A stretch of DNA of 34,196 bases from positions 1-34,196 of IMG/VR virus record IMGVR_UViG_3300043470_001261, one strand, 5' to 3'. Below, piece after piece: positions 2,999 through 24,057 of this stretch; position 1 is the stretch's first letter; each line of letters begins with the position of its first letter. The notes under the pieces were generated by a model. That model worked only from the letters and a program-made list of their open reading frames with translations, had not been told where the DNA came from and searched no databases. Source of the stretch: a virus. A program made the position numbers and the translations under genes.

Positions 2999-4168
2999 AT
3001 GTCGAACATCACTGTTCGCGAGCGCAAGCCCGGCGTCTGGACCGTCCGCGTCGAGACGCGGGGCGCCGCCGGCAAGCGGGCGTTCCAGTACGCGACCGTG
3101 AAGGGCAGCCGGAAGGACGCGGACGCGGAGCGCTCGCGCCTGATGGTCGCCCTGGCGACGACGCCAGGCGGGGAGCCTGCTGATGTGACGAACGTCCTGG
3201 CCGGGCCGACGCCCCTCGACACGCTGACGGTCGGGGCCTGGGTGGAGCAATGGCTCGACACCCAGAAGACCATGAAGGTGTACAGGCCGCAGGCGCTGCG
3301 AACCGTCATCCGCCTCTGCCACTACGTGACGGCCGCCTGGGGGCCGAAGCGGATCTCGAGCCTGACCCGCACGGACGTGCTGAACGGCTTGGTGTCACTC
3401 GCAAAGCGCGGGCTTGGGCCGCACCGGCTCCGCGGCGCCGCAGCCTACGGCAGGCGCCTCATGAAGGACGCCGCGGCGGCCGGCGCGTCGGTAAAGCTGG
3501 CGCATTGGGATGATCTGCCCCTCCCGCGGCGGCCGAAGAGCGCGGGCGTGGTGCTGACCGACGCCGACCAAGCGAAGGTGCTGGCGCATGTGGCCGGGCA
3601 CAGGAAAGGTATGTTGGTGCGTTTCGCGCTGGCGACGGGCGCCAGGCGGCAGGAGATCGCCGCGCTCCAGTGGAGGGACATCAACTGGCGCGCCGGCAGC
3701 GTCAGCATATCGCGGGCTGCGTACTACGACGAAGACGGCGCGCAGCGCGTTGGCGAGACGAAGACCGAGAGCAGCCAGCGCACAGTGAAAGTGCCGAAAT
3801 CGCTCCTCGTCGAGCTCCGCGAACAGCGCCACCGGGACGAGGTCGCCGTGCTTCGAACCGGCGGCTTGGCCGTTGAGGTCGAGGACATGGTCATCTTCCG
3901 CACGTCGCACGGCCGCCCCTGGAGCCTGGACGGGCTGTCGAGCGCAATCTCGGAGGTGCTGACCGAGGCGGGCTACCCCAGCCTGTCCCTGCACGATCTC
4001 CGCCACATGCACGCCACGGCCCTGCTGCGGGCGAAGCTGTCGCCGCGGGCGGTCCAGCGCCGCATGGGCCACAGCGACATCAGCGTGACGCTCGGCGTTT
4101 ACGGCCACGTCCTACCGGACGACGACGACACCCTGGCCGAAGCGATGGATCAGATCATCAACAGGTAG
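2999..4168 (+). CDS. int: Tyrosine recombinase/integrase
   Basis: A complete 389-residue phage integrase that catalyses site-specific recombination between phage and host attachment sites. The N-terminal arm-binding region (VRERKPGVWTVRVETRG) is followed by a core-binding SAM-like domain around residues 75-170, then the catalytic domain. All catalytic residues are visible: R216 in ATGARRQEIAAL, K255 in ETKTESSQRTV, H332 and R335 in SLHDLRHMHAT, H358 in RRMGHSDISV, and the nucleophile Y368 in GVYGHV. It is last in a three-gene cluster and is closed by a strong hairpin at 4237. The attachment core could not be identified from the window because no second copy or tRNA end is present. Confidence 0.95.
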   Translation: MSNITVRERKPGVWTVRVETRGAAGKRAFQYATVKGSRKDADAERSRLMVALATTPGGEPADVTNVLAGPTPLDTLTVGAWVEQWLDTQKTMKVYRPQALRTVIRLCHYVTAAWGPKRISSLTRTDVLNGLVSLAKRGLGPHRLRGAAAYGRRLMKDAAAAGASVKLAHWDDLPLPRRPKSAGVVLTDADQAKVLAHVAGHRKGMLVRFALATGARRQEIAALQWRDINWRAGSVSISRAAYYDEDGAQRVGETKTESSQRTVKVPKSLLVELREQRHRDEVAVLRTGGLAVEVEDMVIFRTSHGRPWSLDGLSSAISEVLTEAGYPSLSLHDLRHMHATALLRAKLSPRAVQRRMGHSDISVTLGVYGHVLPDDDDTLAEAMDQIINR

Positions 4169-12152: not shown

Positions 12153-12383
12153 GTGAAGAACTACCCAACCCGCCCCGACAAGCATGTCACCGAGGCGCGC
12201 ATCGAGCGCATCCGCGAGCTCCGCGCGAAGGGTATGAGCTACGCCAAGATCGCCGACGAGCTCAACGTCAGCACGCAGAGCGTCCACCAGCTTTCGGTGC
12301 GCTACGGCATCCTCAAGGCCGTCGATCGGCCGGCGATCCCGCTTCATGAACCTACACCCCCGGCCGCGAGGAGCCCCGAATGA
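12153..12383 (+). CDS. Small helix-turn-helix protein
   Basis: The GTG at 12153 lies behind GAGGAGGAG; the frame is open earlier but within terL. The 76-residue protein contains IERIRELRAKGMSYAKIADE then LNVSTQSVHQLSVRYGI, a resolvase/Hin-like helix-turn-helix (helix, GMSY.KIAdeL turn, recognition helix). It ends in a short Pro-rich tail. It probably binds DNA, perhaps as a late-gene regulator or packaging accessory, given its place between terminase and portal. The HTH call is good; the role is inferred. Confidence 0.7.
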   Translation: MKNYPTRPDKHVTEARIERIRELRAKGMSYAKIADELNVSTQSVHQLSVRYGILKAVDRPAIPLHEPTPPAARSPE

Positions 12384-12580
12384 CCCCCGACCGCATCAAG
12401 GTGCTGATCGACTGGAACGAGCAGCGCGCGAAGCTGGCGCAGTACGAAGAGGACGCGCAGGCGCACCGCGCTTCGGCTGAAGCGCTGGGCTTGCTGCTGC
12501 CCGCGCAGCCGGCTACCCCGCCGCCCGCCGAACCGGCTCCCGCCAAGCCCACCGCCCGTGCGCGCAAGCGCGCACACTAG
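12380..12580 (+). CDS. Small hypothetical protein with Pro/Ala-rich basic tail
   Basis: The ATG overlaps the previous stop (ATGA). The 66 residues form one helix (DRIKVLIDWNEQRAKLAQYE then DAQAHRASAEALGLLL) and an unstructured tail of Pro, Ala and Lys/Arg ending ARARKRAH, which could bind nucleic acid. It is last before a terminator-like hairpin and the portal gene. No family was recognised. Confidence 0.6.
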   Translation: MTPDRIKVLIDWNEQRAKLAQYEEDAQAHRASAEALGLLLPAQPATPPPAEPAPAKPTARARKRAH

Positions 12581-12605
12581 CGTCTAGTTACGCCCAGCGC
12601 ACGCG

Positions 12606-12625
12606 CCCGAGCCTCATCGCTCGGG
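12606..12625 (+). terminator. Hairpin between small genes and the portal gene
   Basis: CCCGAGC-CTCATC-GCTCGGG is a perfect 7-bp stem with a 6-base loop. A nearly identical element, CCGAGC-GTCATC-GCTCGG, lies at 18697-18714. The flanking sequence (TTACGCCCAGCGCAC before, TGCGTTGCG after) resembles that around the hairpin at 2405-2438. It has no T-run, so it may be an attenuator or RNA-processing site rather than a full terminator. Confidence 0.5.
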
Positions 12626-12683
12626 TGCGTTGCGCCCGGCTCCTCTGCGCGCGTAACGCTGCACGCTACTCGTGGAGGGTGGC

Positions 12684-14957
12684 GTGGCTTACGATCAAGC
12701 CGAGGTGCCGGAGGGCGTGCAGGAGGCGGTTCGCGCCGCCTACAGCGACGCCGCCCAGTTCATTGACGACGAGATCGCGCCTCTTCGCGAGAAGGCGTTC
12801 AGCTACTTCGACGGCTATGTCTGGAGCCGCGCCGGCAAGCCGGAGACGCCTGACGATCTGGAGGGCCGCTCCAGCATCGTCATGCGCGAGGTGGCTGACA
12901 CGATCCAGCAGATGCTGCCTGGTCTGATCCGCGTCTTCACCTCCGGCGAACAGGTCGTCCAGTTCGTCCCCAACGGCCCCGAAGACGAGGCCCTGGCGGA
13001 GCAGCAGACGGACTACGTCAACCACGTCATGAACAGCGACGGGAACAGCTTCTTCGTGCTGCTGCACGACGCGCTGCACGACGCGCTGCTGAAGAAGACC
13101 GGCGTCCTCATGTGGTACTGGGACGAGCGCGTCACCGTTGACGAGATGACCTTCACCGGCCTGTCGCCGTTCCAGGCGGCCAGGCTGGAGCAAGACCCCG
13201 AGATCGAGGTGCTGGAGCGGACGGAGACGTTCGCGGCGCCCCTCGCTTCGCCGCCTCCGTCCGAAGCCGTTGGCGGGGTGTTCCCGCCTGCCGCACCTCC
13301 CCCGGCGGACGTGATGGCGGCGGCCCCCGGCGTTGATCCTTCCCCGGCGCCGGGGGCGCCCTTTGCCGAGCCGACGATCGAAATGCGCGTTCGCCGCCGC
13401 CGTACCCGCGGCGCGCTGCGCGTGGAGGCTGTGCCGCCGGAGGAGTTCGTCATCGCGCGCGACGCGCGGGACGTGCCGACGACGCCGTACTGCGCCCGCC
13501 GCCGGCTGCCGACCGTCTCCGAGCTCGTGGAGGCCGGCTATGACCGCGAGGCGGTCGAGCGCCACGCGCGCGAGGACATCGAGTTCGGTCTGAACGAGGA
13601 GGCCGAGCAGCGGAACCCCGGCCTCCGCGAGCGCGTCAGCGGCAGCCCGCGCGACCGCAGCCAGTGGCGCGTGCTCTATGCCGAGCACTACATCCGCTTC
13701 GACAGCGACGACGATGGCGTGGCCGAGCTCCACCGCGTCTGCACAGTCGGCGAGCAGTGCGAGGAGGTGCTGCACGACGAGATCGTGCCGGAGGCGCCGT
13801 TCGCGGTGTTCAGCCCCGTGCGTCTGCCGCATGCGGTGTTCGGCTACAGCGTCGCCGATCAGGTGATCGACTTGCAGGATCTGAAGACGCAGATCATGCG
13901 CTCGGTCCTCGACAGCCTGGCGGAGAGCCTGGACCCCAAGATGGGGGTGGTCGAGAACGCGGTGCGGATGGAGGACGTGCTCAACAACGAGCGCGGCGCC
14001 GTCATCCGCATGTCGGCGCCCGGCATGGTGCAGCCCTTTGCGATGCCGTTCGTCGGCCCGCAGGCGATGGGCGTCATGGCGTACCTCGATGAGGTCCGCG
14101 CGCAGCGCACCGGCATCACCAGGGCCAGCCAGGGCCTCGACCCCGAGATCCTCCAGAGCACGACGAAGGCGGCGGTGCAGAACACCGTCGAGGCGGCGCA
14201 GGAGCGGGTCGAGATGATCGCCCGCACGATCGCCGAGACGGGCGTGAAAGCGCTCTTCCGCGGTGTGCTGCGCGCCATCATCCGCCATCAGGACAAGCCG
14301 CGGGTGGTGCGGCTCCGCAATCAGTGGGTGGAGGTCGATCCTCGAGCCTGGGACGCGGAGATGGATGTCTCGGTGAATGTCGGCCTGGGCCGCGGCACCG
14401 AGGAGCAGAAGATGGGCTTCCTGGCCCAGATTGTTCAGAAGCAGGAGCAGATCCTCACGACGCTCGGGCCGGCGAACCCGCTCGTGGATCTCCGCCAGCT
14501 TCGCTCGACCTACGCCGAGATGCTGCGCCTGGCCGGCTACAAGGACGCGTCGCGCTTCTTCAAGGAAATCGACCAGGCGGCAATGCAGCAGATGGCCCAG
14601 GCCTCGCAGCAGCGTCAGGCGCCGATGGACCCGAACATGCTGCTCGCCCAGGTCGAGGCCCAGAAGGCGCAGATCGACATGCAGATCGCGCGCGAGAAGA
14701 TGCAGCTTGAGTGGCTGAAGGCCCAACAGGCTGACGACCGCGAGCGTGACAAGACCGAGGCCGACATCGCGCTGCGGGCCGCCGAGATGCAGGCCCGCTA
14801 CGGCGCGCAGATCAACATGGCGGAGATCAAGGCCTCGATCGACCGCGACCGGAACCTGATGCAGATGCAGGCGCAGCAGCAGCGCGACGCCATGCAGATG
14901 CAGCAGCGCCGCGAGCAGGCCGCCATGCAGAGCCAGCAGCAGGGGGCGGTGCAGTGA
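12684..14957 (+). CDS. Portal protein (P22-like)
   Basis: The dodecameric DNA gate of the capsid. The start is the GTG at 12684 preceded by GGAGGG; the GTG at 12672 is too close to that site. The 757 residues open AYDQAEVPEGVQEAVRAAYS and continue with an alpha-helical wing region including SSIVMREVADTIQQMLPGLI and a conserved GVLMWYWDER. A core contains FGYSVADQVIDLQDLKTQIM and GITRASQGLDPE. The C-terminal 100 residues form a Gln-rich helical barrel (MQARYGAQINMAEIKASIDR and on), as in P22 gp1-like portals. About 55 residues of Pro/Ala-rich sequence (around 185-235) interrupt the region after LEQDPEIEVLERTETF. Confidence 0.88.
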   Translation: MAYDQAEVPEGVQEAVRAAYSDAAQFIDDEIAPLREKAFSYFDGYVWSRAGKPETPDDLEGRSSIVMREVADTIQQMLPGLIRVFTSGEQVVQFVPNGPEDEALAEQQTDYVNHVMNSDGNSFFVLLHDALHDALLKKTGVLMWYWDERVTVDEMTFTGLSPFQAARLEQDPEIEVLERTETFAAPLASPPPSEAVGGVFPPAAPPPADVMAAAPGVDPSPAPGAPFAEPTIEMRVRRRRTRGALRVEAVPPEEFVIARDARDVPTTPYCARRRLPTVSELVEAGYDREAVERHAREDIEFGLNEEAEQRNPGLRERVSGSPRDRSQWRVLYAEHYIRFDSDDDGVAELHRVCTVGEQCEEVLHDEIVPEAPFAVFSPVRLPHAVFGYSVADQVIDLQDLKTQIMRSVLDSLAESLDPKMGVVENAVRMEDVLNNERGAVIRMSAPGMVQPFAMPFVGPQAMGVMAYLDEVRAQRTGITRASQGLDPEILQSTTKAAVQNTVEAAQERVEMIARTIAETGVKALFRGVLRAIIRHQDKPRVVRLRNQWVEVDPRAWDAEMDVSVNVGLGRGTEEQKMGFLAQIVQKQEQILTTLGPANPLVDLRQLRSTYAEMLRLAGYKDASRFFKEIDQAAMQQMAQASQQRQAPMDPNMLLAQVEAQKAQIDMQIAREKMQLEWLKAQQADDRERDKTEADIALRAAEMQARYGAQINMAEIKASIDRDRNLMQMQAQQQRDAMQMQQRREQAAMQSQQQGAVQ

Positions 14958-15637
14958 GCCGGATGCGCCGGGCGCAGCGCGCCATCGAGGGCATGCTGGA
15001 GCGCGACGAGCGCGCCCCGGTGACTGTTCCGAAGCGGACCAGCGTGCGCGGCCAGCCGCACAAGCTGGCGTACATCAACGACGAGGAGGCCGCCCTGCTG
15101 CGGTCCCGCGGCGGCGGCGTGGACCGCGACGGCGGCCAGATCATGCACCGCGGGGTGCCGGCGTACTTCGCCGGAGATAACGCGGACAGCGGCACTGCGA
15201 ACACTACCGGCGACAGCGCACCCAGCAGTCAGGGCGGCGGGTACAATGACGGCGGCGGTGACGGTGGTTATGGCGGGGGCGGTGCCCCGGCGGCGATGTC
15301 GCCGGAAGCCGCGGCTGCCGCTGACCGCCGCAAGCGTCTGAACGCGGGCGAGTACATCCCCAGCGCGACGCCGTTCGCAACACCGGCCCCGTTCTTCGCA
15401 CCGATGCCGGCTGGCCTGGGCGGGCCGCCGCCCGGCATGTCGAGCCCCTTCGCTGCCTTCCGCGACACGCTCGGCATGCCGTTCGCCATGACGCCCTACG
15501 CGCTGAACCCCGCCCCGGCCCGACCGGCGATGGACGCGTTCGCGCCGCTGCCGCCCGCGCCGACGCCCATGCCGATGCCGCGCGCGGACCAGACGACCGG
15601 CTTCTTCGACTATCTCCGCATGCTGCGAGGCTATTGA
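14954..15637 (+). CDS. Hypothetical virion-associated protein, Gly/Pro-rich
   Basis: The GTG overlaps the portal stop (GTGA). The 227 residues begin with a basic helical segment (RRAQRAIEGMLERDERAPVT), then TSVRGQPHKLAYINDEEAAL and a Gly-rich stretch. The long C-terminal part is rich in Pro, Ala, Met and Phe (APFFAPMPAGLGGPPPG), ending TTGFFDYLRMLRGY. This suggests an elongated, mostly disordered structural or assembly protein. Its position between the portal and the large unknown protein places it in head assembly, but I recognise no family. Confidence 0.65.
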   Translation: MSRMRRAQRAIEGMLERDERAPVTVPKRTSVRGQPHKLAYINDEEAALLRSRGGGVDRDGGQIMHRGVPAYFAGDNADSGTANTTGDSAPSSQGGGYNDGGGDGGYGGGGAPAAMSPEAAAAADRRKRLNAGEYIPSATPFATPAPFFAPMPAGLGGPPPGMSSPFAAFRDTLGMPFAMTPYALNPAPARPAMDAFAPLPPAPTPMPMPRADQTTGFFDYLRMLRGY

Positions 15638-18246
15638 TGAGCGGGCTTCTCGACGAGGAATATGACGCCCGCCTGGCGGGCCGCGATCCGTACGCGACGC
15701 CCGCCAGCCGTCTGGGTGTGGCCGGGGTGGCTGTGCCGCGGCAGGGCAGGGAGCGCATGTCTTTCGGCGACATGGCGCGCGGTGTTGGTCAGGGGGTGCA
15801 AGCGCTCGGCTCGCTCGTCCCGACGCCGGGGGCGATGCTGCGGGGGTACTCAAGCGCTCTCGCCGGGATGGATATCCCCGAGGGTTCGCGGGTCATCCAA
15901 ACTGATATGACCGACAGCGGCTACGCGTTTCTTCTTGCGGACGGTCGCATGGTTGACCCAGCGGGACGCCAGGGGCGGGATGTTCGCGAGTGGGCGGCAA
16001 CCGAGCGTCGCGGCTCGGTCCTTCCGCTGTCGCAGAACACCGACACGGGTGAGGTGTCGCTCGCCGTGCCCGGCCTGCTCGATGCATTGCCAATGGCCGG
16101 CATGCAGGGCGGCCCGGCCGGCGCTCTGGGCGCTGGCGCGGGACGCCGGGCGCGCCTTAACGCCGGCGGCCCTTCGACCATCCCGACATACGATGACTTC
16201 GTGCGCCGCGGCGTCATCACGCCAGAACCGACCGCGCCGGTCGGCGGCGCGGCGGCTTCGACCAGTGGTGACATCGTCAACCAGGGCGCGGCGGCGGGTC
16301 TGGGGGGCGGCGTTCGCGGCATGGCGGCTGTCCCGAACCTTCGGGTGCTGTCGGCGGCTGACGCGGCACGTGTTGCGGCCAATGAGCCGCACCTGATCCG
16401 GACGGCGGATAGCGGCTATGTCGGCGCCCCGGATTGGGTTCGGGCCCCGGAGGATCTGGCGAAGCTGCGCGCCGACCTCGATGAGCTCATCGACGCGGGC
16501 GGGCCTTACCGCGGCTGGTATCAGCGCACTCGCGACTTCATCCGCGAGGTGTCGGGCGGCGACCCGTACCGCGAGCGCCATATCTCGCAGGGCCTTGGGG
16601 TCACATCCCCGCAAGCCTCACCAGACACCAACCTCAACTTCCAGGCGCAGGCCATCACGGCTTACGAGCGCGGCCAGCCCGCCGAAATTGTCCGTACCGG
16701 CAACACGGCGCGGGCCTACAATGAAGGCCGGGCCGCGATCGAGGCCGACGCCGCAAACGTCGCGCGCCAGGCCGGCGGGCAGCCGAGCATCGGCGACAAT
16801 CGCCCGCCGATCGGCGAGCGCATTGTGGACGAAGAGCCGCCGCAGATGCGGCTGGGGCGGAAGACAGGCGTCTACGCCCAGCAGATTGACCCCAGCGCGC
16901 CCTGGGCGCCGACCGGCACGAACGACACGTGGATGGCGCGCGCGTTCGGGTTTCGTAACCCGAGCGGCGACGCCGGCCCCTTCGCCGGCAGCGTCACGCC
17001 GCAGATGCACGCCTTCATGGACTACGAAACCGTCCTGGCGGTGCAGCGCGCCAACGCGCGCCGTGCTGGTGGCTTCAACGATTGGAACGCCGCCAACATC
17101 CAAGAGGTGCCGTGGGTCGTTCTGGGCGGCCGGATGAACTCCGAGCGCCTGGGTATCCCGTTCGAAGAGGCGGTCCAGCGCATGGACCGCACCTACCCAG
17201 ACTATGCCGGCAACTACAGCGCCTATCTGCCCCACGAACAGGTGCCCGGCCGATCGACGGGCGTCCTGCCCGGCCTGCTGGACCCGGAGCAGGGAGACGC
17301 GCGCGAAGCCTTCAGCCGCGCCGCGACCTGGCGCACCCGAACCGGCAACGACGCACTCCTGCAAGATATCGGGCTGATGAACCGCTACACGCAGGAGGCG
17401 CCGGGTATCTACCGGAACAGCGAGGGTGTGCTGGAGCGCAATCCCACTGAGGTTGCGACGGCGATCGTCCCGAATGTCGAGCTCCCCCACAGCGGGCGGG
17501 GCGCCGCGCCGCGTGGCGTGGACCCGCGCGCGGGCGAGACGCTGACCGGCGTCCAGGCTGTGCGCGGTCTGGTGGACGCGCAGGAAGGCAGCCCCTGGTA
17601 CTACATCCAGGCGCCGGACCCGCAGGGTGTGGGCCGCGGCGGCGGCGCGCAGAACAACTTCCGGGTTGATCTCGGGCGGCAGCCTACGAGGGCCGAAGCC
17701 GACGCCTTGCAGGCTATCGCCGAGCGTGAGGGGTTCAGCTTCTCCAACAGCCGCGATGGCGCCGCCTTCTTGAACTTCGGTGACATGGACAACGCCCAGG
17801 CGGGCCGTGCCATGAAGCGCTTGCAGACGGAGATCAGCGCGATCAACCCGCGGGCCCGCGTCTCTCGCGGGCGGCGCGACGGCGACTATGTTGACCTGTC
17901 TGAAGAGTTGAGCGTCGAGAACCAGGGCCAGGGCCGGGCGACGCAGAAGGCGCTTTCGTACGTGGACGCCATGCCGGGCGCCGCAGGCGAGCGCCTGCTG
18001 GACAGCCCGGCAATTCGACAGAAGGCAGAGCAGAACCTCCGGCGGCTGGTCGAATATGGCGGCCAGGGGCAGCGCCCTGACTACGAGCGGATGCTGAACA
18101 TCCTCTCTGTCGGCGGCCTGCGCGGCCTGCGGGATTTCGTGCGCCGCAACGGCCCCGCCGGCCTCCCGGCTACCCTTCTGACGGCTCTTGGCCTGCAAGA
18201 GGCCACTGGTGAGCCGGCACCTTCTCGCGGGCTGCTGGCGGAATGA
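15637..18246 (+). CDS. Large conserved-type phage protein of unknown function (869 aa)
   Basis: The ATG at 15637 overlaps the previous stop; a TTG one codon earlier is in frame. N-terminal residues 1-220 are Gly/Ala-rich with a short beta-rich region (SRVIQTDMTDSGYAFLLADG RMV). The middle, about 225-470, carries the best-preserved-looking blocks: YRGWYQRTRDFIREVSGGDP, GLGVTSPQASPDTNLNFQAQ, a NTARAYNEG segment, and TNDTWMARAFGF. The C-terminal region includes EVPWVVLGGRMNSERLGIPF and a late LSYVDAMPGAAGERLLDSPA. The blocks resemble large uncharacterised proteins in podovirus head operons. It may be an internal virion protein or enzyme; no catalytic motif is convincing. A reverse-strand gene overlaps its last 77 bases. 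Confidence 0.7.
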   Translation: MSGLLDEEYDARLAGRDPYATPASRLGVAGVAVPRQGRERMSFGDMARGVGQGVQALGSLVPTPGAMLRGYSSALAGMDIPEGSRVIQTDMTDSGYAFLLADGRMVDPAGRQGRDVREWAATERRGSVLPLSQNTDTGEVSLAVPGLLDALPMAGMQGGPAGALGAGAGRRARLNAGGPSTIPTYDDFVRRGVITPEPTAPVGGAAASTSGDIVNQGAAAGLGGGVRGMAAVPNLRVLSAADAARVAANEPHLIRTADSGYVGAPDWVRAPEDLAKLRADLDELIDAGGPYRGWYQRTRDFIREVSGGDPYRERHISQGLGVTSPQASPDTNLNFQAQAITAYERGQPAEIVRTGNTARAYNEGRAAIEADAANVARQAGGQPSIGDNRPPIGERIVDEEPPQMRLGRKTGVYAQQIDPSAPWAPTGTNDTWMARAFGFRNPSGDAGPFAGSVTPQMHAFMDYETVLAVQRANARRAGGFNDWNAANIQEVPWVVLGGRMNSERLGIPFEEAVQRMDRTYPDYAGNYSAYLPHEQVPGRSTGVLPGLLDPEQGDAREAFSRAATWRTRTGNDALLQDIGLMNRYTQEAPGIYRNSEGVLERNPTEVATAIVPNVELPHSGRGAAPRGVDPRAGETLTGVQAVRGLVDAQEGSPWYYIQAPDPQGVGRGGGAQNNFRVDLGRQPTRAEADALQAIAEREGFSFSNSRDGAAFLNFGDMDNAQAGRAMKRLQTEISAINPRARVSRGRRDGDYVDLSEELSVENQGQGRATQKALSYVDAMPGAAGERLLDSPAIRQKAEQNLRRLVEYGGQGQRPDYERMLNILSVGGLRGLRDFVRRNGPAGLPATLLTALGLQEATGEPAPSRGLLAE

Positions 18247-18421
18247 GCGCCCAGAGATGAGCCGGCACCCGTTCCCCCTTCGGCCAGGAGACGACGCGCG
18301 GGTTCCCGCGAACCCACCAGCGAGCCTCGTCCATCGGCCGCGGCGCGGACTTGAGGCCCGCCAGAACCATCGCCTTCACGAGCGCCCCGGTGCTCGTGCT
18401 CGGGTTGTAGTCCTTGTCCAT
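18170..18421 (-). CDS. Reverse-strand small protein inside the late operon (accessory gene candidate)
   Basis: Read on the minus strand from the ATG at 18421, with GGAGG-TGAGAGG upstream. All 83 codons show very strong G/C at third positions, while the plus strand of 18247-18465 has no good frame. This marks it as genuine rather than a shadow. The product reads MDKDYNPSTSTGALVKAMVL, then LKSAPRPMDEARWWVRGNPR and two related motifs VPAHLWAL and VPAHQWPL around PPAAREK. No domain is recognised. It overlaps the end of the 869-residue gene by 77 bases in convergent orientation and diverges from the next gene with 44 bases between. Such isolated opposing genes are often lysogenically expressed accessory genes. 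Confidence 0.65.
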   Translation of the reverse strand: MDKDYNPSTSTGALVKAMVLAGLKSAPRPMDEARWWVRGNPRVVSWPKGERVPAHLWALIPPAAREKVPAHQWPLAGQEPSEG

Positions 18422-18465
18422 GACGCTAACGACCTCTCACCTCCAAACGGGCCAGCGTAGCACAG

Positions 18466-18741
18466 ATGGCCGCTGACCCCCAAACCCTCCTCGCCCAGGC
18501 CGAGCTCGCCGCTCGCGACGCCAGGGGCGCCCTGGAGCACCCCGGCCTCAAGGCAGCGCTTGAGCGCCTGGAGGCGCGCTATCTCGACCAGATCCGGGCC
18601 TCAAGCCCCACCGATCGCGACGCGCGGGAGGCGGCGTATTTCCGCCTGCGCGCCCTCGCGGATCTCCGCGCCGACCTCTCGGCGACGGCAGCGGCCCCGA
18701 GCGTCATCGCTCGGAATCACAGATCAGTGTTGAAATCGTAA
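18466..18741 (+). CDS. Small helical protein preceding the scaffold gene
   Basis: The ATG at 18466 has no clear ribosome site; expression may rely on a leader altered by the reverse gene nearby. The 91 residues are highly helical and charged: TLLAQAELAARDARGALEHP, GLKAALERLEARYLDQIRAS, SPTDRDAREAAYFRLRALAD, then RADLSATAAAP. This three-helix layout is familiar from small proteins just upstream of scaffold and capsid genes in podoviruses. It may assist head assembly. Third-position bias is strong. The 3' end contains a 6-bp hairpin (18697-18714) matching the one before the portal gene. Confidence 0.65.
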   Translation: MAADPQTLLAQAELAARDARGALEHPGLKAALERLEARYLDQIRASSPTDRDAREAAYFRLRALADLRADLSATAAAPSVIARNHRSVLKS

Positions 18742-18749
18742 GGGAAGCA

Positions 18750-19787
18750 ATGACAGGCTCCACGATGACGCCCGACCCCGTCAGCACCCCGGACGCCGGG
18801 ACTACGGTGGGCGATGCTGCAAGCGCGATCGAGCGCCTGCTGGCCCGCGAGAGCGGGGAACCGGCGGCCCCCGAGGAGCAAGAGCAGCTCAATGCCGAGG
18901 CCGAGCAGGCCGAGGCGCAGCAGCCTGACGACGAAGCGGATGAGACGCAGGAGGAGGCCGAGGCCGAGTCCGGTGCCGCAGAGGAAGAGGGCGCCGCGGA
19001 TGACGAAGATCAGCCGCAGCAAGAGCCTGACGCGAAGACGCTCGTCACCGTCGAGATCGACGGCAAGGCAGAGCAGATCCCGCTGGAGGAGCTCAAGCGC
19101 AGCTATCTGAGGACCGCGGACTACACGCGGAAGACGCAGGCCCTGGCCGCGGAGCGCAAGTCGCTCCAGAGCGAGGTGCAGGCGTTGAGGACGGAGCGGC
19201 AGCAATACGCGGCACTCCTGCCGGCCCTAGAGCAGCAGCTTCACACGCTGACGCCGAGGGAACCGGACTGGGACCGCCTGCTGAACGATGACCCGATCGA
19301 GTACGTGCGCCAGGTCGAGCTCAAGCGCCAGCGGGACGAAAAGCTCCGCGCGGCGCAGATGGAGCAGCAGCGCCTTGCCACCCTGCAATCGCAGGAGCAG
19401 GCCCGCGAGCTCCAGGCGAAACTGGCCGAGGAACGCGACGCGCTGACCCAGGCGATCCCCGCCTGGAAAGACAGCGCGAAATGGGCAGCCGATCGTGCTC
19501 GCATCCGCGAGTATGGGGCCAGGCTCGGATGGAGTGACGAGGAGCTTTCCGGCGTCACCGACCACCGGGCTGTCACGGTCCTGTACAAGGCGATGCAGTT
19601 CGATGAGGCGATGACCCGCCGGCCTTCCCCGGCACCCGCCCAGAAGCAGGCAGCCCCTGCTCCGGTGCGGCCGGGAAGCCAGCGAACCGCCCCGCGTACC
19701 GTCTCGGACCTCACCCGCGCGAAGCAGCGTCTCGCGAAAACCAATTCCGTCCGCGACGCCGCGGCGGTCCTTGAACGGCTTCTGTAG
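18750..19787 (+). CDS. Scaffold protein
   Basis: The ATG at 18750 follows AGGGA. The 345 residues show the typical scaffold profile: a very acidic, disordered N-terminal half (EEQEQLNAEAEQAEAQQPDD), a short folded patch VTVEIDGKAEQIPLEELKRS then YLRTADYTRKTQALAAERKS, a long coiled coil (about 125-260), a small WSDEELSGVTDHRAVTVLYK region, and a basic C-terminal tail (TVSDLTRAKQRLAKT) that would bind the coat protein. The VEIDGKAEQIPLEEL...GYL..ADYT pattern is common in scaffolds that accompany SU10-type capsid proteins. It lies directly upstream of the capsid gene with an 8-base gap. Confidence 0.85.
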   Translation: MTGSTMTPDPVSTPDAGTTVGDAASAIERLLARESGEPAAPEEQEQLNAEAEQAEAQQPDDEADETQEEAEAESGAAEEEGAADDEDQPQQEPDAKTLVTVEIDGKAEQIPLEELKRSYLRTADYTRKTQALAAERKSLQSEVQALRTERQQYAALLPALEQQLHTLTPREPDWDRLLNDDPIEYVRQVELKRQRDEKLRAAQMEQQRLATLQSQEQARELQAKLAEERDALTQAIPAWKDSAKWAADRARIREYGARLGWSDEELSGVTDHRAVTVLYKAMQFDEAMTRRPSPAPAQKQAAPAPVRPGSQRTAPRTVSDLTRAKQRLAKTNSVRDAAAVLERLL

Positions 19788-19795
19788 GGGTCACC

Positions 19796-20770
19796 ATGAG
19801 CAAAATTTCGAACTCCTTCGCGACGTACAGCGCGCGGGGCAACCGAGAGGATCTCTCGGACATCATCTACAACATCGACCCGACCGACACCCCCGTGATG
19901 TCGGCGATCGGCACCCGCAACGTCACGAACAAGCAGTTCGACTGGCAGACCGAGAGCCTGCCGGCGGTGGACGGGAACAACGCCCGCGTTGAAGGTTTCG
20001 AACTGTCCCGCTCGGCTTCCACGCCGACCGTGCGCCAGTTCAACGTGACGCAGATCTCCAGCCGCGACGCGACCGTCACCGGCTCCCAGGAGGCCGCGAA
20101 CGCCGCCGGCAAGCGTTCGGAGATGGCGCACCAGATCGCCCTCGTCGGCAAGGCGCTGAAGCGCGACATGGAGGTGATCATCTGCGGTCGCCAGCCGCGT
20201 GCGGACGGTGACGACGCCGGCTCCGGCACGGCGCGCCGCACCCGTGCGCTGGAGCACTGGATCACGACCAACGTCGCCTACGGCGCGACGGGCGCGAACG
20301 GCGCGAACGCGACGACCGCGCTGACCGACGGCACGAAGCGCGCCTTCACTGAGGCCCTGCTCGCGCAGTCCATCCAGACCGCCTACGAGAACGGCGCCGA
20401 GCCCTCGACCCTGGTGATGGGCCCGTATGCGAAGCGCAAGTTCTCGACCTTTGCCGGCCGCTCGCAGAGCCGCGTGAAGGTGGACGAGGACCAGATTGTC
20501 GCGGCGGCTGACTTCTACCTGTCCGACTTCGGCGAGGTGAAGGCGGTGCCGTCGCGCTTCTCGCGTGCGCGCACTGTGCTCGGCCTCGACCCCGAGTACG
20601 CGAAGGTGGGCTATTACCGCCGCTTCCAGCGCACCGACATCGCGAAGATCGGCGACGCCGACACGAAGATGCTTCTGGCCGAGTGGGGCCTGGAGGTGTC
20701 GAACGAGAAGGCGCACTTCAAGATCGCGGACGTGTTCGAAAGCGCGGCCGAGGAAGCCGCCGCGGCCTAA
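19796..20770 (+). CDS. Major capsid protein (SU10/DUF5309 type, HK97 fold)
   Basis: The 324-residue protein begins MSKISNSFATYSARGNREDL, then SDIIYNIDPTDTPVMSAIGT, the characteristic start of SU10-type capsid proteins. Further blocks are NVTQISSRDATVTGSQEAAN, the spine-helix-like EMAHQIALVGKALKRDMEVI, an insertion with repeated GANGAN (the region often forming a domain or loop), and C-terminal TDIAKIGDADTKMLLAEWGL. It assembles the icosahedral head with the scaffold and portal. AGGGG precedes the ATG. A strong double hairpin follows the stop, as is common after very highly expressed capsid genes. Confidence 0.93.
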   Translation: MSKISNSFATYSARGNREDLSDIIYNIDPTDTPVMSAIGTRNVTNKQFDWQTESLPAVDGNNARVEGFELSRSASTPTVRQFNVTQISSRDATVTGSQEAANAAGKRSEMAHQIALVGKALKRDMEVIICGRQPRADGDDAGSGTARRTRALEHWITTNVAYGATGANGANATTALTDGTKRAFTEALLAQSIQTAYENGAEPSTLVMGPYAKRKFSTFAGRSQSRVKVDEDQIVAAADFYLSDFGEVKAVPSRFSRARTVLGLDPEYAKVGYYRRFQRTDIAKIGDADTKMLLAEWGLEVSNEKAHFKIADVFESAAEEAAAA

Positions 20771-20779
20771 ACCGCGGCA

Positions 20780-20804
20780 GCGGCGGGCGCACTACGCCCG
20801 CCGC
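20780..20804 (+). terminator. Strong hairpin after the major capsid gene
   Basis: GCGGCGGGCG pairs over 10 perfect bases with CGCCCGCCGC around a CACTA loop, nine bases after the capsid stop, followed by CTTACG. The GC-rich stem makes it a probable partial terminator or a 3' stabiliser that raises capsid mRNA relative to downstream genes. Confidence 0.7.
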
Positions 20805-20810
20805 CTTACG

Positions 20811-20836
20811 CGCCACACACAACTGTATGTGTGGCG
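20811..20836 (+). terminator. Second hairpin in the capsid-adaptor gap
   Basis: CGCCACACA (20811-20819) and TGTGTGGCG (20828-20836) form a 9-bp perfect stem with an 8-base loop. It follows the 20780 hairpin by six bases. A weaker GAGAC-TTGC-GTCTC element lies near 20881-20894. The rest of the 152-base gap to 20923 shows no gene. Confidence 0.6.
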
Positions 20837-20922
20837 GCCCGCGCCAGGCCATTCGTGGCCCGGCGCACCCCCGGCGACGGGAGACTTGCGTCTCGGGCCT
20901 TACGTGGAGGGCACACCGGCTT

Positions 20923-21219
20923 ATGCATCGCGCAATTTACGACCAGTTCGGCGGTGTGGTGCGCTCGGTCCATGTGGACCGCTCGGAGGATCGGATGGTC
21001 TTCGCGAGCGAGCAGGATGTGGACCCGATCCTCCGCGCCAACGAGCGCGACCGAGACGTGGATCAGCGGGGGCGTGAGTTCCGCCTGGCGGCCCGCGTGC
21101 CGATCGAGGTGGTGGGCCGCGCTATGCGCGAGGGCTGGTACAACGACAAGGCGGCCTGGAAGCGCTGGATGAACGACAACGAGAACCGCGCCTTCCGCGT
21201 GTGGGAGGGCCGGGTCTGA
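20923..21219 (+). CDS. Small hypothetical head protein between capsid and adaptor
   Basis: The start is the ATG at 20923, behind GGAGG at 12 bases. Upstream codons in the same frame lie in the terminator hairpins and are unlikely. The 98-residue protein starts MHRAIYDQFGGVVRSVHVDR, continues VFASEQDVDPILRANERDRD, and ends with VPIEVVGRAMREGWYNDKAA then WKRWMNDNENRAFRVWEGRV. The last block is common in small proteins at this position in podovirus genomes. It is soluble and charged. Its exact virion role is unknown, but its place in the head operon is conserved. Confidence 0.75.
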   Translation: MHRAIYDQFGGVVRSVHVDRSEDRMVFASEQDVDPILRANERDRDVDQRGREFRLAARVPIEVVGRAMREGWYNDKAAWKRWMNDNENRAFRVWEGRV

Positions 21220-21857
21220 TGGCGCTCGCCAGCTACGCCGACCTCAAGACCAGCATCGCCGGCTGGCTGAACCGCCGGGATCTGACCGCTGTCATCCCTG
21301 ACTTCATCCGCCTGGCGGAAGACGACATCGCCAGCAAGCTGCGCGATCGGCGGATGCTGTCCCGCGTCGAGGCGACCGTTGAGGAGCAGCCGATCGCGCT
21401 GCCGACCGATTGGATCGAGGCCGCGCGTGTCGCGCCCGAAGGCGGGGCACCGCTGGAGCCGGTGACGCTGGAGCGCTTGCAGGAGCTCCGCCACGATCGC
21501 CGGCTGCCGCTGATGCTCAACGCCGAAGCGACGACCGGCGGCCCGCAGTATTTCGCCATCAACGGCACCGTCATGGAGTTCTGGCCGGTCCCGGCCAGCC
21601 CGGTGGTGCTGGAGATGACCTACTACGCCCGCGTCCCGCGCCTGACGGATGCCGCGCCGACCAACTGGCTGCTGGAGCAGGACGCCGCGGTCTACCTCTA
21701 CGGCGCCCTCGTGCAGAGCGCGCCGTATCTCAAGGACGACCAGCGCGTCGTCGTCTGGGCGGGCCTCTACAAGGACCGCATCGACACCCGCAACAACGCC
21801 AGCCGCTCGGCCGCCTTCAACGGCGGCGCGCTGAAGCGCGTGCGCCGCGGCTTCTGA
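21219..21857 (+). CDS. Head-tail adaptor protein (P22 gp4/T7 gp11-like position)
   Basis: The ATG overlaps the previous stop as TGATG. The 212-residue protein begins ASYADLKTSIAGWLNRRDLT then IPDFIRLAEDDIASKLRDRR, the helical start of adaptor proteins that dock on the portal. It continues with a beta-rich middle (IALPTDWIEAARVAPEGGAP; FAINGTVMEFWPVPAS; LEMTYYARVPRL) and a C-terminal helical part with NWLLEQDAAVYLYGALVQSA, PYLKDDQRVVVWAGLYKDRI. This combination is typical of podovirus connector/adaptor proteins. It follows the capsid genes and precedes tail genes. Confidence 0.75.
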   Translation: MALASYADLKTSIAGWLNRRDLTAVIPDFIRLAEDDIASKLRDRRMLSRVEATVEEQPIALPTDWIEAARVAPEGGAPLEPVTLERLQELRHDRRLPLMLNAEATTGGPQYFAINGTVMEFWPVPASPVVLEMTYYARVPRLTDAAPTNWLLEQDAAVYLYGALVQSAPYLKDDQRVVVWAGLYKDRIDTRNNASRSAAFNGGALKRVRRGF

Positions 21858-21867
21858 GGAGATCAAC

Positions 21868-22248
21868 ATGGCAAACCTCACCGACTACTCCGAGAACCTT
21901 CTCCTCACCTGGCTGATGACGACCAACGCCGCCACGCGGCCGACCGCTTGGTGGGTGGGTGTTGGCACGGGTCACACCGACACCGGCCTGACCGGGGAGC
22001 CGAGCGGCAACGGCTACGCGCGCCAGGCGCTGGCCTCGACTGTCACGGGCAGCACCTCCGCGAGCAACAGCGCGCTGCTCTTCGGTCCGGCGACCGCGTC
22101 CTGGGGCGCGATGGCGAGCGTCGCGATCTTCGACGCAGCAAGCGGCGGTAACGCGCTGTGGACGGGGGCGCTTCAGACGGCGCGCACGATCGACAGTGGC
22201 GACAGCCTGTCCATCGCGGCAGGCACGCTCACCGAGACGCTGGCTTAA
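21868..22248 (+). CDS. Small tail-associated structural protein
   Basis: A strong GAGGAGATC precedes the ATG. The 126-residue product is beta-rich and uncharged: NLTDYSENLLLTWLMTTNAA, RPTAWWVGVGTGHTDTGLTG, then VTGSTSASNSALLFGPATAS and ALQTARTIDSGDSLSIAAGT. Proteins with W..G.GTG..D.GL.GE and a final SGDSL.I..G.L are recurrent in tail regions next to fibre genes. It may form a fibre-base or decoration domain. The family resemblance is from pattern only. Confidence 0.65.
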   Translation: MANLTDYSENLLLTWLMTTNAATRPTAWWVGVGTGHTDTGLTGEPSGNGYARQALASTVTGSTSASNSALLFGPATASWGAMASVAIFDAASGGNALWTGALQTARTIDSGDSLSIAAGTLTETLA

Positions 22249-22263
22249 AACGAGGCGCGCGGT

Positions 22264-24057
22264 ATGACCGAGATCAAGATTAGCGATCTGCCGGCGGCGA
22301 CGCAGGCGAACGCAACCGATCAGCTTGAGACGAACCAGAGCGGCACGTCGCGCCGCCTGACCGTCGCCCAGGTCGCCGCCTACGTTTCCGGCAACCTCGC
22401 CAGCCCGGCCATCACCGGGGCCACGGTCGTCTCCGCCAACACCTCCACCGACGCCCTCCGCATCACTCAGACCGGCACCGGCAACGCTCTGGTTGTCGAG
22501 GACAGCGCGAACCCGGATGCGACGCCTTTTGTGGTCACGGCGGATGGCAACGTCGGCATCGGCACCTCGTCGCCTGCCAAGAAACTCTCGATTGACACTG
22601 GCGGCGCAGGAGACGGGGTCCAGGTTTTCGCTACCGGAGGTGGTGCAGGATCGGGGGGCAACGTCGCTGTTTTTGAGGGTATCAGCCATCGCGGAGACGG
22701 TAACCAATCATTTGGCTCTAAGTTTGCGGCGGCGTTTCGGCGCTCTGATGGGACGGCTATTGCGGCAGGCGTAAGGCTTGGCAACCTGCTTTTTGGCGGT
22801 CAGTGGGGAACTGACACCACATATCAGCCAAACAAGATCCGGTATGCCGCTTCTATCACTGGCGTTGCGGAAGGCAGCTTTACGTCCGAAACCGCCATGC
22901 CCACAGCAATTGCGTTTCGTACCGGCAGCACCGGGGAAGATGCGTACAGCATCAATACTCCCTATGGCACCGAGCGCATGCGTATCGACGCCAGCGGCAA
23001 CGTCGGCATCGGCACGTCGTCTCCGGGCTCCAAGTTTACTGTCTATACTAGCAATACTGACAGTCTCAATGGCGTTCTCGTCGCTGGCGGCGCCACGAAT
23101 AAGACCGTCATGCTTCGTCCTTCTATGGGCGCAGGCAGCAACAACAATATTGTTCAGGCCGGGGATGGCGGCATCATCTTCGATGGTGGCACGGTTGATA
23201 CCGGGGCCTTTGTCATCGCGCCTTGGGCCAACGCCACAAGCGGTATCCGCATCGTTGGATCGACAGGTAACGTCGGCATCGGTACGTCGTCGCCAGATAC
23301 AAGCCTCGGGGTTAACGGCGGTATCCGCGCTAGGGGAGGCGCGCCTGGGGCTGGAGGAATAAACAACAACGGGTATTCCTTTGGCGGCGGTGGTGGCGAC
23401 ACAGACGGGGGCATGTTTTCCTCCGCTGACGGGCAAGTGGAGTTTTACGCCAACTCTGTCGAACGCGCTCGCATTAACTCAGCCGGGAATTTTAGGATTG
23501 GGACGACCGCCTTTACGGGTGGCACCGAGAGCCGACTAGCTGTCGCGGGTACCAGCGGCGCTACTTGGTCCGAGAGGACGGTAACTCTTGAACATACCGG
23601 CGGCAATCAGCCGGGTATCGGCTTCCACGCGCCCAGTGTTGCCGCCAGTATCTTCAAGTTTTTCGGGCCGAGCAATCGCTTTGAGTGTAGGAACAACAAT
23701 GACACTGCCTTCATAGACATTGCAGCCAATTCTTGCATCAGCGTCTCGGACTACCGCCTCAAGGAAAATATCGCGCCGTTCAGTGGCGGTCTTTCTGCGG
23801 TGATGCAGCTTAACCCTGTCACCTTCAAGTGGAAGGACAAGGACCGGGCTGCTGTTGGCTTTGTCGCCCATGAGGTGCAGGCCGCAATCCCGACCGCCAT
23901 CACGGGCGTCAAGGACGAGATGCACGACGAGAAGACCCCGGCCTTCCAGGGCATCGATCCGTTGCAAATTGTCGCCGTGCTGACCAAGGCCGTTCAAGAA
24001 CTTACCGCGAAACTGGAAGCCGCGGAGGCCCGCATCGCAACTCTGGAGAACCGCTAA
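22264..24057 (+). CDS. Tail fibre with C-terminal S74 intramolecular chaperone
   Basis: The 597-residue protein starts with a short anchor MTEIKISDLPAATQANATDQ familiar from fibre attachment regions, then a beta-structured shaft with the motif GNVGIGTSSP three times (near 95, 245 and 337). The C-terminus carries the peptidase S74 chaperone: the cleavage dyad SDYRLKENI starts at residue 495, followed by LNPVTFKWK, VGFVAHEVQ and a terminal coiled coil TKAVQELTAKLEAAEARIAT. In this family the chaperone drives trimer folding and cuts itself off before the Ser. The middle of the gene has clearly lower GC and relaxed third positions compared with its neighbours, suggesting acquisition by transfer. 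It is the likely receptor-binding fibre. Confidence 0.9.
   Translation: MTEIKISDLPAATQANATDQLETNQSGTSRRLTVAQVAAYVSGNLASPAITGATVVSANTSTDALRITQTGTGNALVVEDSANPDATPFVVTADGNVGIGTSSPAKKLSIDTGGAGDGVQVFATGGGAGSGGNVAVFEGISHRGDGNQSFGSKFAAAFRRSDGTAIAAGVRLGNLLFGGQWGTDTTYQPNKIRYAASITGVAEGSFTSETAMPTAIAFRTGSTGEDAYSINTPYGTERMRIDASGNVGIGTSSPGSKFTVYTSNTDSLNGVLVAGGATNKTVMLRPSMGAGSNNNIVQAGDGGIIFDGGTVDTGAFVIAPWANATSGIRIVGSTGNVGIGTSSPDTSLGVNGGIRARGGAPGAGGINNNGYSFGGGGGDTDGGMFSSADGQVEFYANSVERARINSAGNFRIGTTAFTGGTESRLAVAGTSGATWSERTVTLEHTGGNQPGIGFHAPSVAASIFKFFGPSNRFECRNNNDTAFIDIAANSCISVSDYRLKENIAPFSGGLSAVMQLNPVTFKWKDKDRAAVGFVAHEVQAAIPTAITGVKDEMHDEKTPAFQGIDPLQIVAVLTKAVQELTAKLEAAEARIATLENR

What the first reader, a model, noticed from the sequence alone, without database searches (positions are those of the whole stretch)
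18170..18465. Reverse-strand gene embedded in the late operon
The minus-strand frame 18421-18170 has strong third-position G/C and a ribosome site, while the plus strand there has none. It overlaps the end of the large unknown gene and diverges from the next gene. Isolated opposing genes in late operons are often expressed from the prophage and alter the host (morons). This one has no recognised family.
Basis: partly seen in the sequence, partly recalled or inferred. Interest (0 to 1): 0.58.

Follow-up and report, generated by a model that had tools for sequence, protein, structure and literature searches.

The report
Opposite-strand accessory gene in temperate phage
A small gene running against the direction of a temperate phage's virion genes is a real, selected protein gene that travels with its large neighbour as a swappable two-gene block, and it is most likely an accessory gene used while the phage lies dormant in its host.

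Summary
The minus-strand ORF 18421-18170 (ATG, 83 aa) is real. Its codon usage is coding-like in that frame only. Its one divergent homologue (L003; 67% identical, same length and start) shows purifying selection: pN/pS 0.26 in the non-overlapping part, 0 of 5000 permutations as low. No Pfam, NCBIfam, PHROG, PADLOC or PDB family was found.

It is not isolated. It and the 870-aa gene whose 3' end it overlaps form a two-gene block. That block recurs in a phage with a terminase of another PHROG, and it is replaced as a whole in a sister phage 98.6-98.8% identical on either side. The same portal-scaffold interval holds other opposite-strand genes in close relatives: DUF3597 plus CsbD, a 71-aa phage gene, a patatin-like frame. 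More distant relatives rarely have one.

The moron reading is partly supported: an accessory, exchangeable gene in an integrase-bearing phage. Promoter, lysogen expression and phenotype remain unshown. The closest working analogue is Tab of phage JBD26 (83 aa, minus strand, convergent with its antidote), without sequence homology. A helix-turn-helix reading failed its test.

The parts
18170..18421 (-). 83-aa protein-coding gene (9.1 kDa, pI 9.7), the finding itself
   Evidence: ORF; codon usage; selection against L003; no known family
18433..18444 (-). Possible ribosome binding site: GAGAGG at 18438-18433 (11 nt before the ATG), GGAGG at 18444-18440 (18 nt before it)
   Evidence: Read by eye and the upstream string printed; spacing longer than usual
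18454..18483 (-). Weak promoter candidate: TTGGGG (18483-18478), 18 nt, TACGCT (18459-18454), inside the start of the 91-aa gene
   Evidence: By eye only; it falls below the 9-of-12 consensus threshold and the scan found no promoter. L003 has TTGCGA-16-TAAACT about 31 nt before its ATG (by eye)
15634..18246 (+). 870-aa large late gene, second member of the two-gene block; its last 77 nt overlap the 83-aa gene. Polyvalent-type virion-region protein by inference
   Evidence: No family for the window protein; homologue in L003 68.8% identical over 868 aa, fused at its N-terminus to an SLT domain; AlphaFold2 model of one segment unusable, pLDDT 36
18466..18741 (+). 91-aa late gene next to the 83-aa gene, divergent from it; marks the downstream edge of the interval in relatives
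   Evidence: Homologues in L005, L006, L008, L011, L012
14954..15637 (+). 227-aa gene between portal and large gene (upstream context)
   Evidence: Homologues in L005, L006, L011 and, for one stretch, within the 1025-aa protein of L003
18750..19787 (+). Head scaffolding protein (context)
   Evidence: PHROG 3927, E 1e-65
2999..4168 (+). Integrase: the phage can probably lysogenise (context)
   Evidence: PHROG 1, E 2.4e-55; PF00589, E 7.5e-24

Best explanation
The ORF is a genuine accessory (moron) gene of a temperate podovirus-type phage. Shown: it encodes an 83-aa protein under purifying selection; it moves together with the convergent 870-aa late gene as a two-gene block; the block sits in a portal-to-scaffold interval that also holds other opposite-strand genes in close relatives. 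Inferred: it is transcribed on its own from the prophage, when the late genes on the other strand are silent, and acts in the lysogen. Most likely action, held at about 0.3 within this reading: a small protein-binding exclusion or defence factor that works like Tab of phage JBD26, blocking a step of competing phages. In that picture its late-expressed convergent partner, or the late transcript that runs against it, keeps it from harming the phage's own lytic cycle, which would explain why the two genes are inherited as a pair.
For: Coding and selection. Integrase in the same phage. Sister phage L005, 98.8% and 98.6% identical on the two sides, lacks the pair. The pair recurs in a phage whose terminase belongs to another PHROG and whose portal is related only at profile level. 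In the same interval close relatives carry opposite-strand DUF3597 and CsbD genes, a 71-aa gene with a homologue in Salinivibrio phage SMHB1 and a long frame with a sub-threshold patatin match. Layout as for tab: 83 aa, minus strand, 3' overlap with the upstream plus-strand gene (77 nt here, 47 nt in JBD26), short gap to the next late gene (44 and 30 nt); Tab is reported to be made constitutively from the prophage and to be always accompanied by its antidote gene (PMC10884400). Genes antisense to prophage lytic genes are described as typical of moron loci (PMC7067206, passages).
Against: No promoter or terminator consensus. No expression data exist. No sequence similarity to Tab, and the partner is 870 aa, not about 83 as anti-Tab. 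L003's contig shows no integrase, though it is a fragment. Co-inheritance rests on two independent sequences and one replacement. Rare families are also what neutral or chance-retained genes would give, although the selection test speaks against that.
Confidence: 0.55

Rival explanations
1. Dedicated partner of the large gene: the 83-aa protein binds the 870-aa protein (or its C-terminal part) as antidote, chaperone or packaging factor, so that a packaged polyvalent-type effector does not act in the cell that makes it.
For: The two genes are found together in 2 of 2 independent contigs and missing together in L005. L005 repeats the arrangement: a 71-aa opposite-strand gene overlaps the end of its ART-PolyVal-like gene. 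Polyvalent proteins are proposed to be injected with the DNA (PMC5512222, abstract and passages).
Against: A partner would normally be co-transcribed with the large gene, not opposed to it. DUF3597, CsbD and the patatin-like frame in the same interval do not look like partners of such genes. The window's large protein has no recognised effector domain.
Confidence: 0.22
2. A small DNA-binding regulator (helix-turn-helix of the YdaS or carph-isopro type) that controls the phage's own or host genes.
For: By eye the stretch VVSWPKGERVPAHLWALI keeps the spacing of the third helix and the following turn in such proteins; the window protein is basic (pI 9.7).
Against: No match to the NCBIfam or Pfam models even at E 10. 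Against profiles built from 12 YdaS and 30 carph-isopro sequences, 27 to 436 of about 1000 shuffled copies scored as well. The L003 homologue is not basic (pI 6.7). The AlphaFold2 model is too poor to judge (pLDDT 52).
Confidence: 0.1
3. The main product is an antisense RNA to the end of the large gene, and the ORF is secondary.
For: 77 nt of convergent overlap; an antisense RNA of a prophage can mediate superinfection exclusion (STnc6030 of BTP1, PMC7067206, passages).
Against: 58 of the 83 codons lie outside the overlap and are under protein-level selection; the DNA upstream of the start codon is not conserved between window and L003.
Confidence: 0.04
4. Chance ORF on the opposite strand of a G+C-rich phage.
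For: Many minus-strand ORFs of this length exist in this window.
Against: 58 of the 83 codons have no gene on the other strand; codon usage and selection both favour this frame; frame, start and length are kept in L003, whose locus is only 60% G+C.
Confidence: 0.03

Closest known systems
Tab / anti-Tab of Pseudomonas phage JBD26 (gp31 / gp30; PMC10884400, passages and part of one section read; record JN811560)
   Same: 83 aa, minus strand within the late genes, 3' end overlaps the upstream plus-strand gene, short gap to the next late gene, always accompanied by that plus-strand gene, absent from close relatives
   Different: No sequence similarity; position is portal-scaffold, not between the terminase genes; the convergent partner is 870 aa; promoter, defence and antidote activity untested
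Prophage genes antisense to the lytic genes, e.g. STMMW_20121 of ST64B (PMC7067206, passages)
   Same: Encoded against the lytic genes in a prophage-forming phage; accessory distribution
   Different: Those are shown by RNA-seq to have their own promoter; here there are no expression data
Polyvalent proteins of phages (PMC5512222, abstract and passages), for the large neighbour only
   Same: Large exchangeable protein among virion genes; the L003 homologue is fused to a lysozyme-type (SLT) domain; ART-PolyVal-like genes lie nearby in L003 and L005, below the curated cut-off
   Different: The window's large protein itself matched no polyvalent domain
olg1/olg2 exclusion genes of phage Fc02 (PMC9936078, passages)
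   Same: Small exclusion gene on the reverse strand, overlapping a gene of the other strand, possibly transcribed in lysogeny
   Different: Lies in the regulatory region, extensively overlapped; no sequence comparison was made here

Membership tests
Moron (prophage accessory gene) | Extra gene, absent from otherwise similar phages | tested here: met
   Absent from L005 (98.6-98.8% identical flanks) and from MJing1, L006 and 11 of 11 annotated relatives viewed; but in L005 it is lost with its large neighbour, never alone
Moron (prophage accessory gene) | Carried by a temperate phage | tested here: met
   Integrase in the window; none on the L003 fragment
Moron (prophage accessory gene) | Own promoter and terminator | tested here: inconclusive
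   Consensus scan found neither; weak candidates by eye only; host promoters unknown
Moron (prophage accessory gene) | Expressed from the prophage and useful to the lysogen | not testable with these tools
   No transcript or phenotype data
Tab (tail assembly blocker) | Sequence similarity to Tab | tested here: not met
   BLASTP 8 residues, E 0.85; hhalign probability 0.5
Tab (tail assembly blocker) | Located between small and large terminase genes | tested here: not met
   Portal-scaffold interval in the window; between terminase and portal in L003
Tab (tail assembly blocker) | Accompanied by a plus-strand antidote gene next to it | tested here: inconclusive
   Accompanied by the large gene in 2 of 2 independent contigs; antidote function untested
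YdaS / carph-isopro helix-turn-helix | Match to the family profile | tested here: not met
   No match at E up to 10 in NCBIfam or Pfam; not better than shuffles
Polyvalent proteins (the 870-aa neighbour) | Several effector-type domains in one virion-region protein | tested here: inconclusive
   No Pfam or PHROG hit for the window protein; SLT domain in the L003 homologue

The most novel reading that the evidence does not exclude
The 83-aa gene and the convergent 870-aa gene are one functional two-gene weapon: a small protein made in the lysogen against rivals (or against the large protein), paired with a large virion-region protein that is its counterpart. The pair spreads as a unit between distantly related phages, in an arrangement that recurs (window, L003, and the 71-aa gene overlapping the ART-type gene in L005): a small gene convergent with the end of a large polyvalent-type gene.
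Probability: 0.2. Interest if true: 0.68.

Novelty: new member of a known kind. Interest (0 to 1): 0.42.

Why it matters
It adds an orphan protein family, and an apparent hot spot for opposite-strand cargo, to an under-described lineage of temperate podovirus-type phages (the host is unknown; a Plastoroseomonas contig carries a 71%-identical capsid gene). If the pair works like Tab and anti-Tab, or as effector and antidote, its inheritance as a unit would give a simple genomic signature (a small gene convergent with the end of a large late gene) for finding prophage defence or effector modules that homology searches miss.

Tried and rejected
Homology to Tab: rejected. More homologues: none by tblastn in 50,697 phage records at E up to 10; two sub-threshold plasmid matches, E 4 and 7; none in IMG/VR by four scans apart from the two contigs already known; none in GTDB contigs by two peptide patterns. 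In 395 genomes of the order of the Plastoroseomonas genome 52 had a profile match at E up to 0.05 per genome, best 5.9e-4; none covers the whole protein and none was accepted as a homologue, but they were not examined one by one. AlphaFold2 of the 83-aa protein (pLDDT 52) and of a segment of the large gene (pLDDT 36): too poor to search. PDB by sequence: only E 0.82 and 1.1 for the small protein, none for the large. Literature on MJing1: no paper held. CsbD as a moron: the listing shows 8 of 552 papers; one of those listed mentions CsbD and it was not read. No claim is made that the gene or hot spot is unpublished beyond the searches. Failed scripts: (missing files, time limit, strand and option errors); redone in 30, 50 and 71.

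Rows dropped before counts: L002/L004 (one 6-kb contig; the 5,428 bases compared are 100% identical to the window) not counted as independent; the selection test leaves out the 25 overlapping codons in its main figure (reported separately); L035 begins at the scaffold gene and is not among the 11 annotated intervals; L011 lacks the portal and is not among the 69 intervals; of 338 IMG/VR relatives by capsid only the best 80 were returned.

Full report
Observation. The window is a virus record of 34,196 bases, 69.3% G+C. Its late genes run on the plus strand: terminase 10709, portal 12672, a 227-aa gene 14954, an 870-aa gene 15634-18246, a 91-aa gene 18466, scaffold 18750, major head protein 19796. 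The minus-strand ORF 18421-18170 starts with ATG and encodes 83 aa. It overlaps the last 77 nt of the 870-aa gene and lies 44 nt from the 91-aa gene. ORF length proves nothing here (one search lists many longer minus-strand ORFs), so coding was tested in two ways. Codon usage trained on 13 genes of the window gives +0.378 bits per codon for the 58 non-overlapping codons; the other five frames give -0.24 to -1.29, and at most 0.9% of random antisense or shifted windows reach it. Against the homologue in L003 those 58 codons carry 50 substitutions, 31 at position 3, with pS 0.659 and pN 0.173; none of 5000 column permutations gave so low a ratio. One opposite-strand phase gives a ratio of 0.32, but it mirrors the same third positions and contains stops. 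In the 25 overlapping codons the ratio is 0.79, so the tail is loosely held. The gene is real. Its ribosome site is fair at best, and no promoter or terminator consensus was found.

Homologues. Patterns and tblastn in IMG/VR found two contigs: a 6-kb piece identical to the window over the part compared, and IMGVR_UViG_3300032296_001974 (L003; 67% identity over 83 aa). Two further pattern scans added none. Phage records gave none, plasmids only E 4 and 7, GTDB contigs none by two patterns. A profile search of 395 genomes of the order of the Plastoroseomonas genome gave weak, partial matches only. No Pfam, NCBIfam, PHROG or PADLOC family matched; PDB sequences gave nothing below E 0.8.

The pair moves together. 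L003 belongs to a phage with a terminase of another PHROG (phrog_38; the window has phrog_2 and others) and a portal related only at profile level. Apart from the pair, a short stretch of the 227-aa gene and a RuvC-like gene, window proteins find nothing there; a few further rows of that search are spurious frames overlapping the pair. Its order is terminase, large gene (1105 aa, fused to an SLT transglycosylase domain), the 83-aa gene on the opposite strand, a 1025-aa gene, portal. The large gene is 68.8% identical, and DNA similarity to the window ends at 18409, 12 nt inside the 83-aa gene's start. Conversely L005, 98.8% identical at 12154-14966 and 98.6% at 18487-22702, has another set in between: an ART-PolyVal-like 253-aa gene, a 73%-identical 227-aa gene and a 584-aa gene weakly like DUF7178 that runs straight into the 91-aa gene, without the 83-aa gene. 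The 83-aa gene and the 870-aa gene therefore behave as one exchangeable block, on the evidence of two independent sequences and one replacement.

The interval holds other opposite-strand genes. The window, the 80 IMG/VR loci and L008, L009, L011-L013 were offered to a survey (86 in all); 69 had portal and capsid matches from which a portal-scaffold interval could be drawn. Minus-strand ORFs with coding-like codon usage and at least 90 nt free of plus-strand genes were flagged in 5 of 7 loci with capsid identity of 67% or more and in 2 of 62 with less. Independent support exists for 3 of those 7: the window (L003 homologue), L125 (the same contig as L005; a 71-aa ORF overlapping the end of the ART-like gene, with a homologue in Salinivibrio phage SMHB1, E 2e-11) and L128 (DUF3597, E 2.7e-50, and CsbD, E 1.6e-14). 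The flags in L126 and L189 are short; L126's matched nothing in Pfam and L189's was not searched. L011 (a Plastoroseomonas contig whose portal lies outside the locus, so not among the 69) has a long minus-strand frame with a sub-threshold patatin match between a 419-aa gene and the 91-aa-like gene. Close relatives also have longer intervals, so more sequence was available to be flagged. In 11 annotated relatives whose portal-scaffold stretch was viewed none has a minus-strand CDS there.

Mechanism. Shown: protein-level selection, accessory distribution, co-inheritance with the convergent large gene, an integrase in the phage. Inferred: expression from the prophage. The closest precedent found is Tab of JBD26: 83 aa, minus strand, own promoter, always accompanied by a plus-strand late gene whose product neutralises it (PMC10884400; passages and part of one section). 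In JN811560 tab (13582-13833) overlaps that gene (13377-13628) by 47 nt and lies 30 nt from the next gene. The layout matches closely; the sequences do not. I therefore propose that it works like such a prophage exclusion factor (about 0.3 within the moron reading) but do not file it as a Tab. A partner or antidote role towards the large protein is the main rival. A helix-turn-helix was suspected by eye and failed its test.

Verdict. It is a new orphan member of a known kind, made more interesting by its linkage to a large exchangeable gene and by the interval's recurring opposite-strand cargo.

Noticed in passing
L128:3521-4351 (IMGVR_UViG_3300036781_000579): Two minus-strand genes, DUF3597 and CsbD (a stress-protein family, as recalled), lie between large plus-strand genes in the portal-scaffold interval of a relative with a 70%-identical capsid protein.
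   Followed up: partly
L005:3965-4180 (-), same as L125:4965-5180 (-): A 71-aa minus-strand gene overlaps the end of an ART-PolyVal-like gene and has a homologue (53% over 51 aa) in Salinivibrio phage SMHB1, in the stretch between replication and portal genes.
   Followed up: partly
L011:3949-6522 (-), Plastoroseomonas hellenica contig: A long minus-strand frame with a sub-threshold patatin match sits where the 83-aa gene sits in the window; by eye its coding frame seems to change near the 3' part, so the gene may be broken or the sequence faulty.
   Followed up: partly
L003:1861-8493 (-): Two very large neighbouring genes: one joins an SLT transglycosylase domain to the homologue of the window's 870-aa protein, the other joins an ART-PolyVal-like domain to a stretch like the window's 227-aa protein.
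   Followed up: partly
window 15634-18246, L005:4926-6680, L008:9888-11402: The gene between the 227-aa-type gene and the 91-aa gene differs entirely between close relatives; two of them match DUF7178, MJing1's above and L005's below the cut-off. By eye the window protein may share that domain; not shown.
   Followed up: partly
L015, L017-L019 and other frames listed: Residues 25-66 of the 83-aa profile give weak repeated matches to frames of about 450-580 aa in many Roseomonas-like genomes (E 0.006-0.3 per genome); whether this is one family was not looked into.
   Followed up: no
L162:7060-7488 (-): A minus-strand ORF of 142 aa with a weak coding signal in the portal-scaffold interval of a distant relative; the part after an internal Met looks protein-like by eye, and no family was found.
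   Followed up: partly
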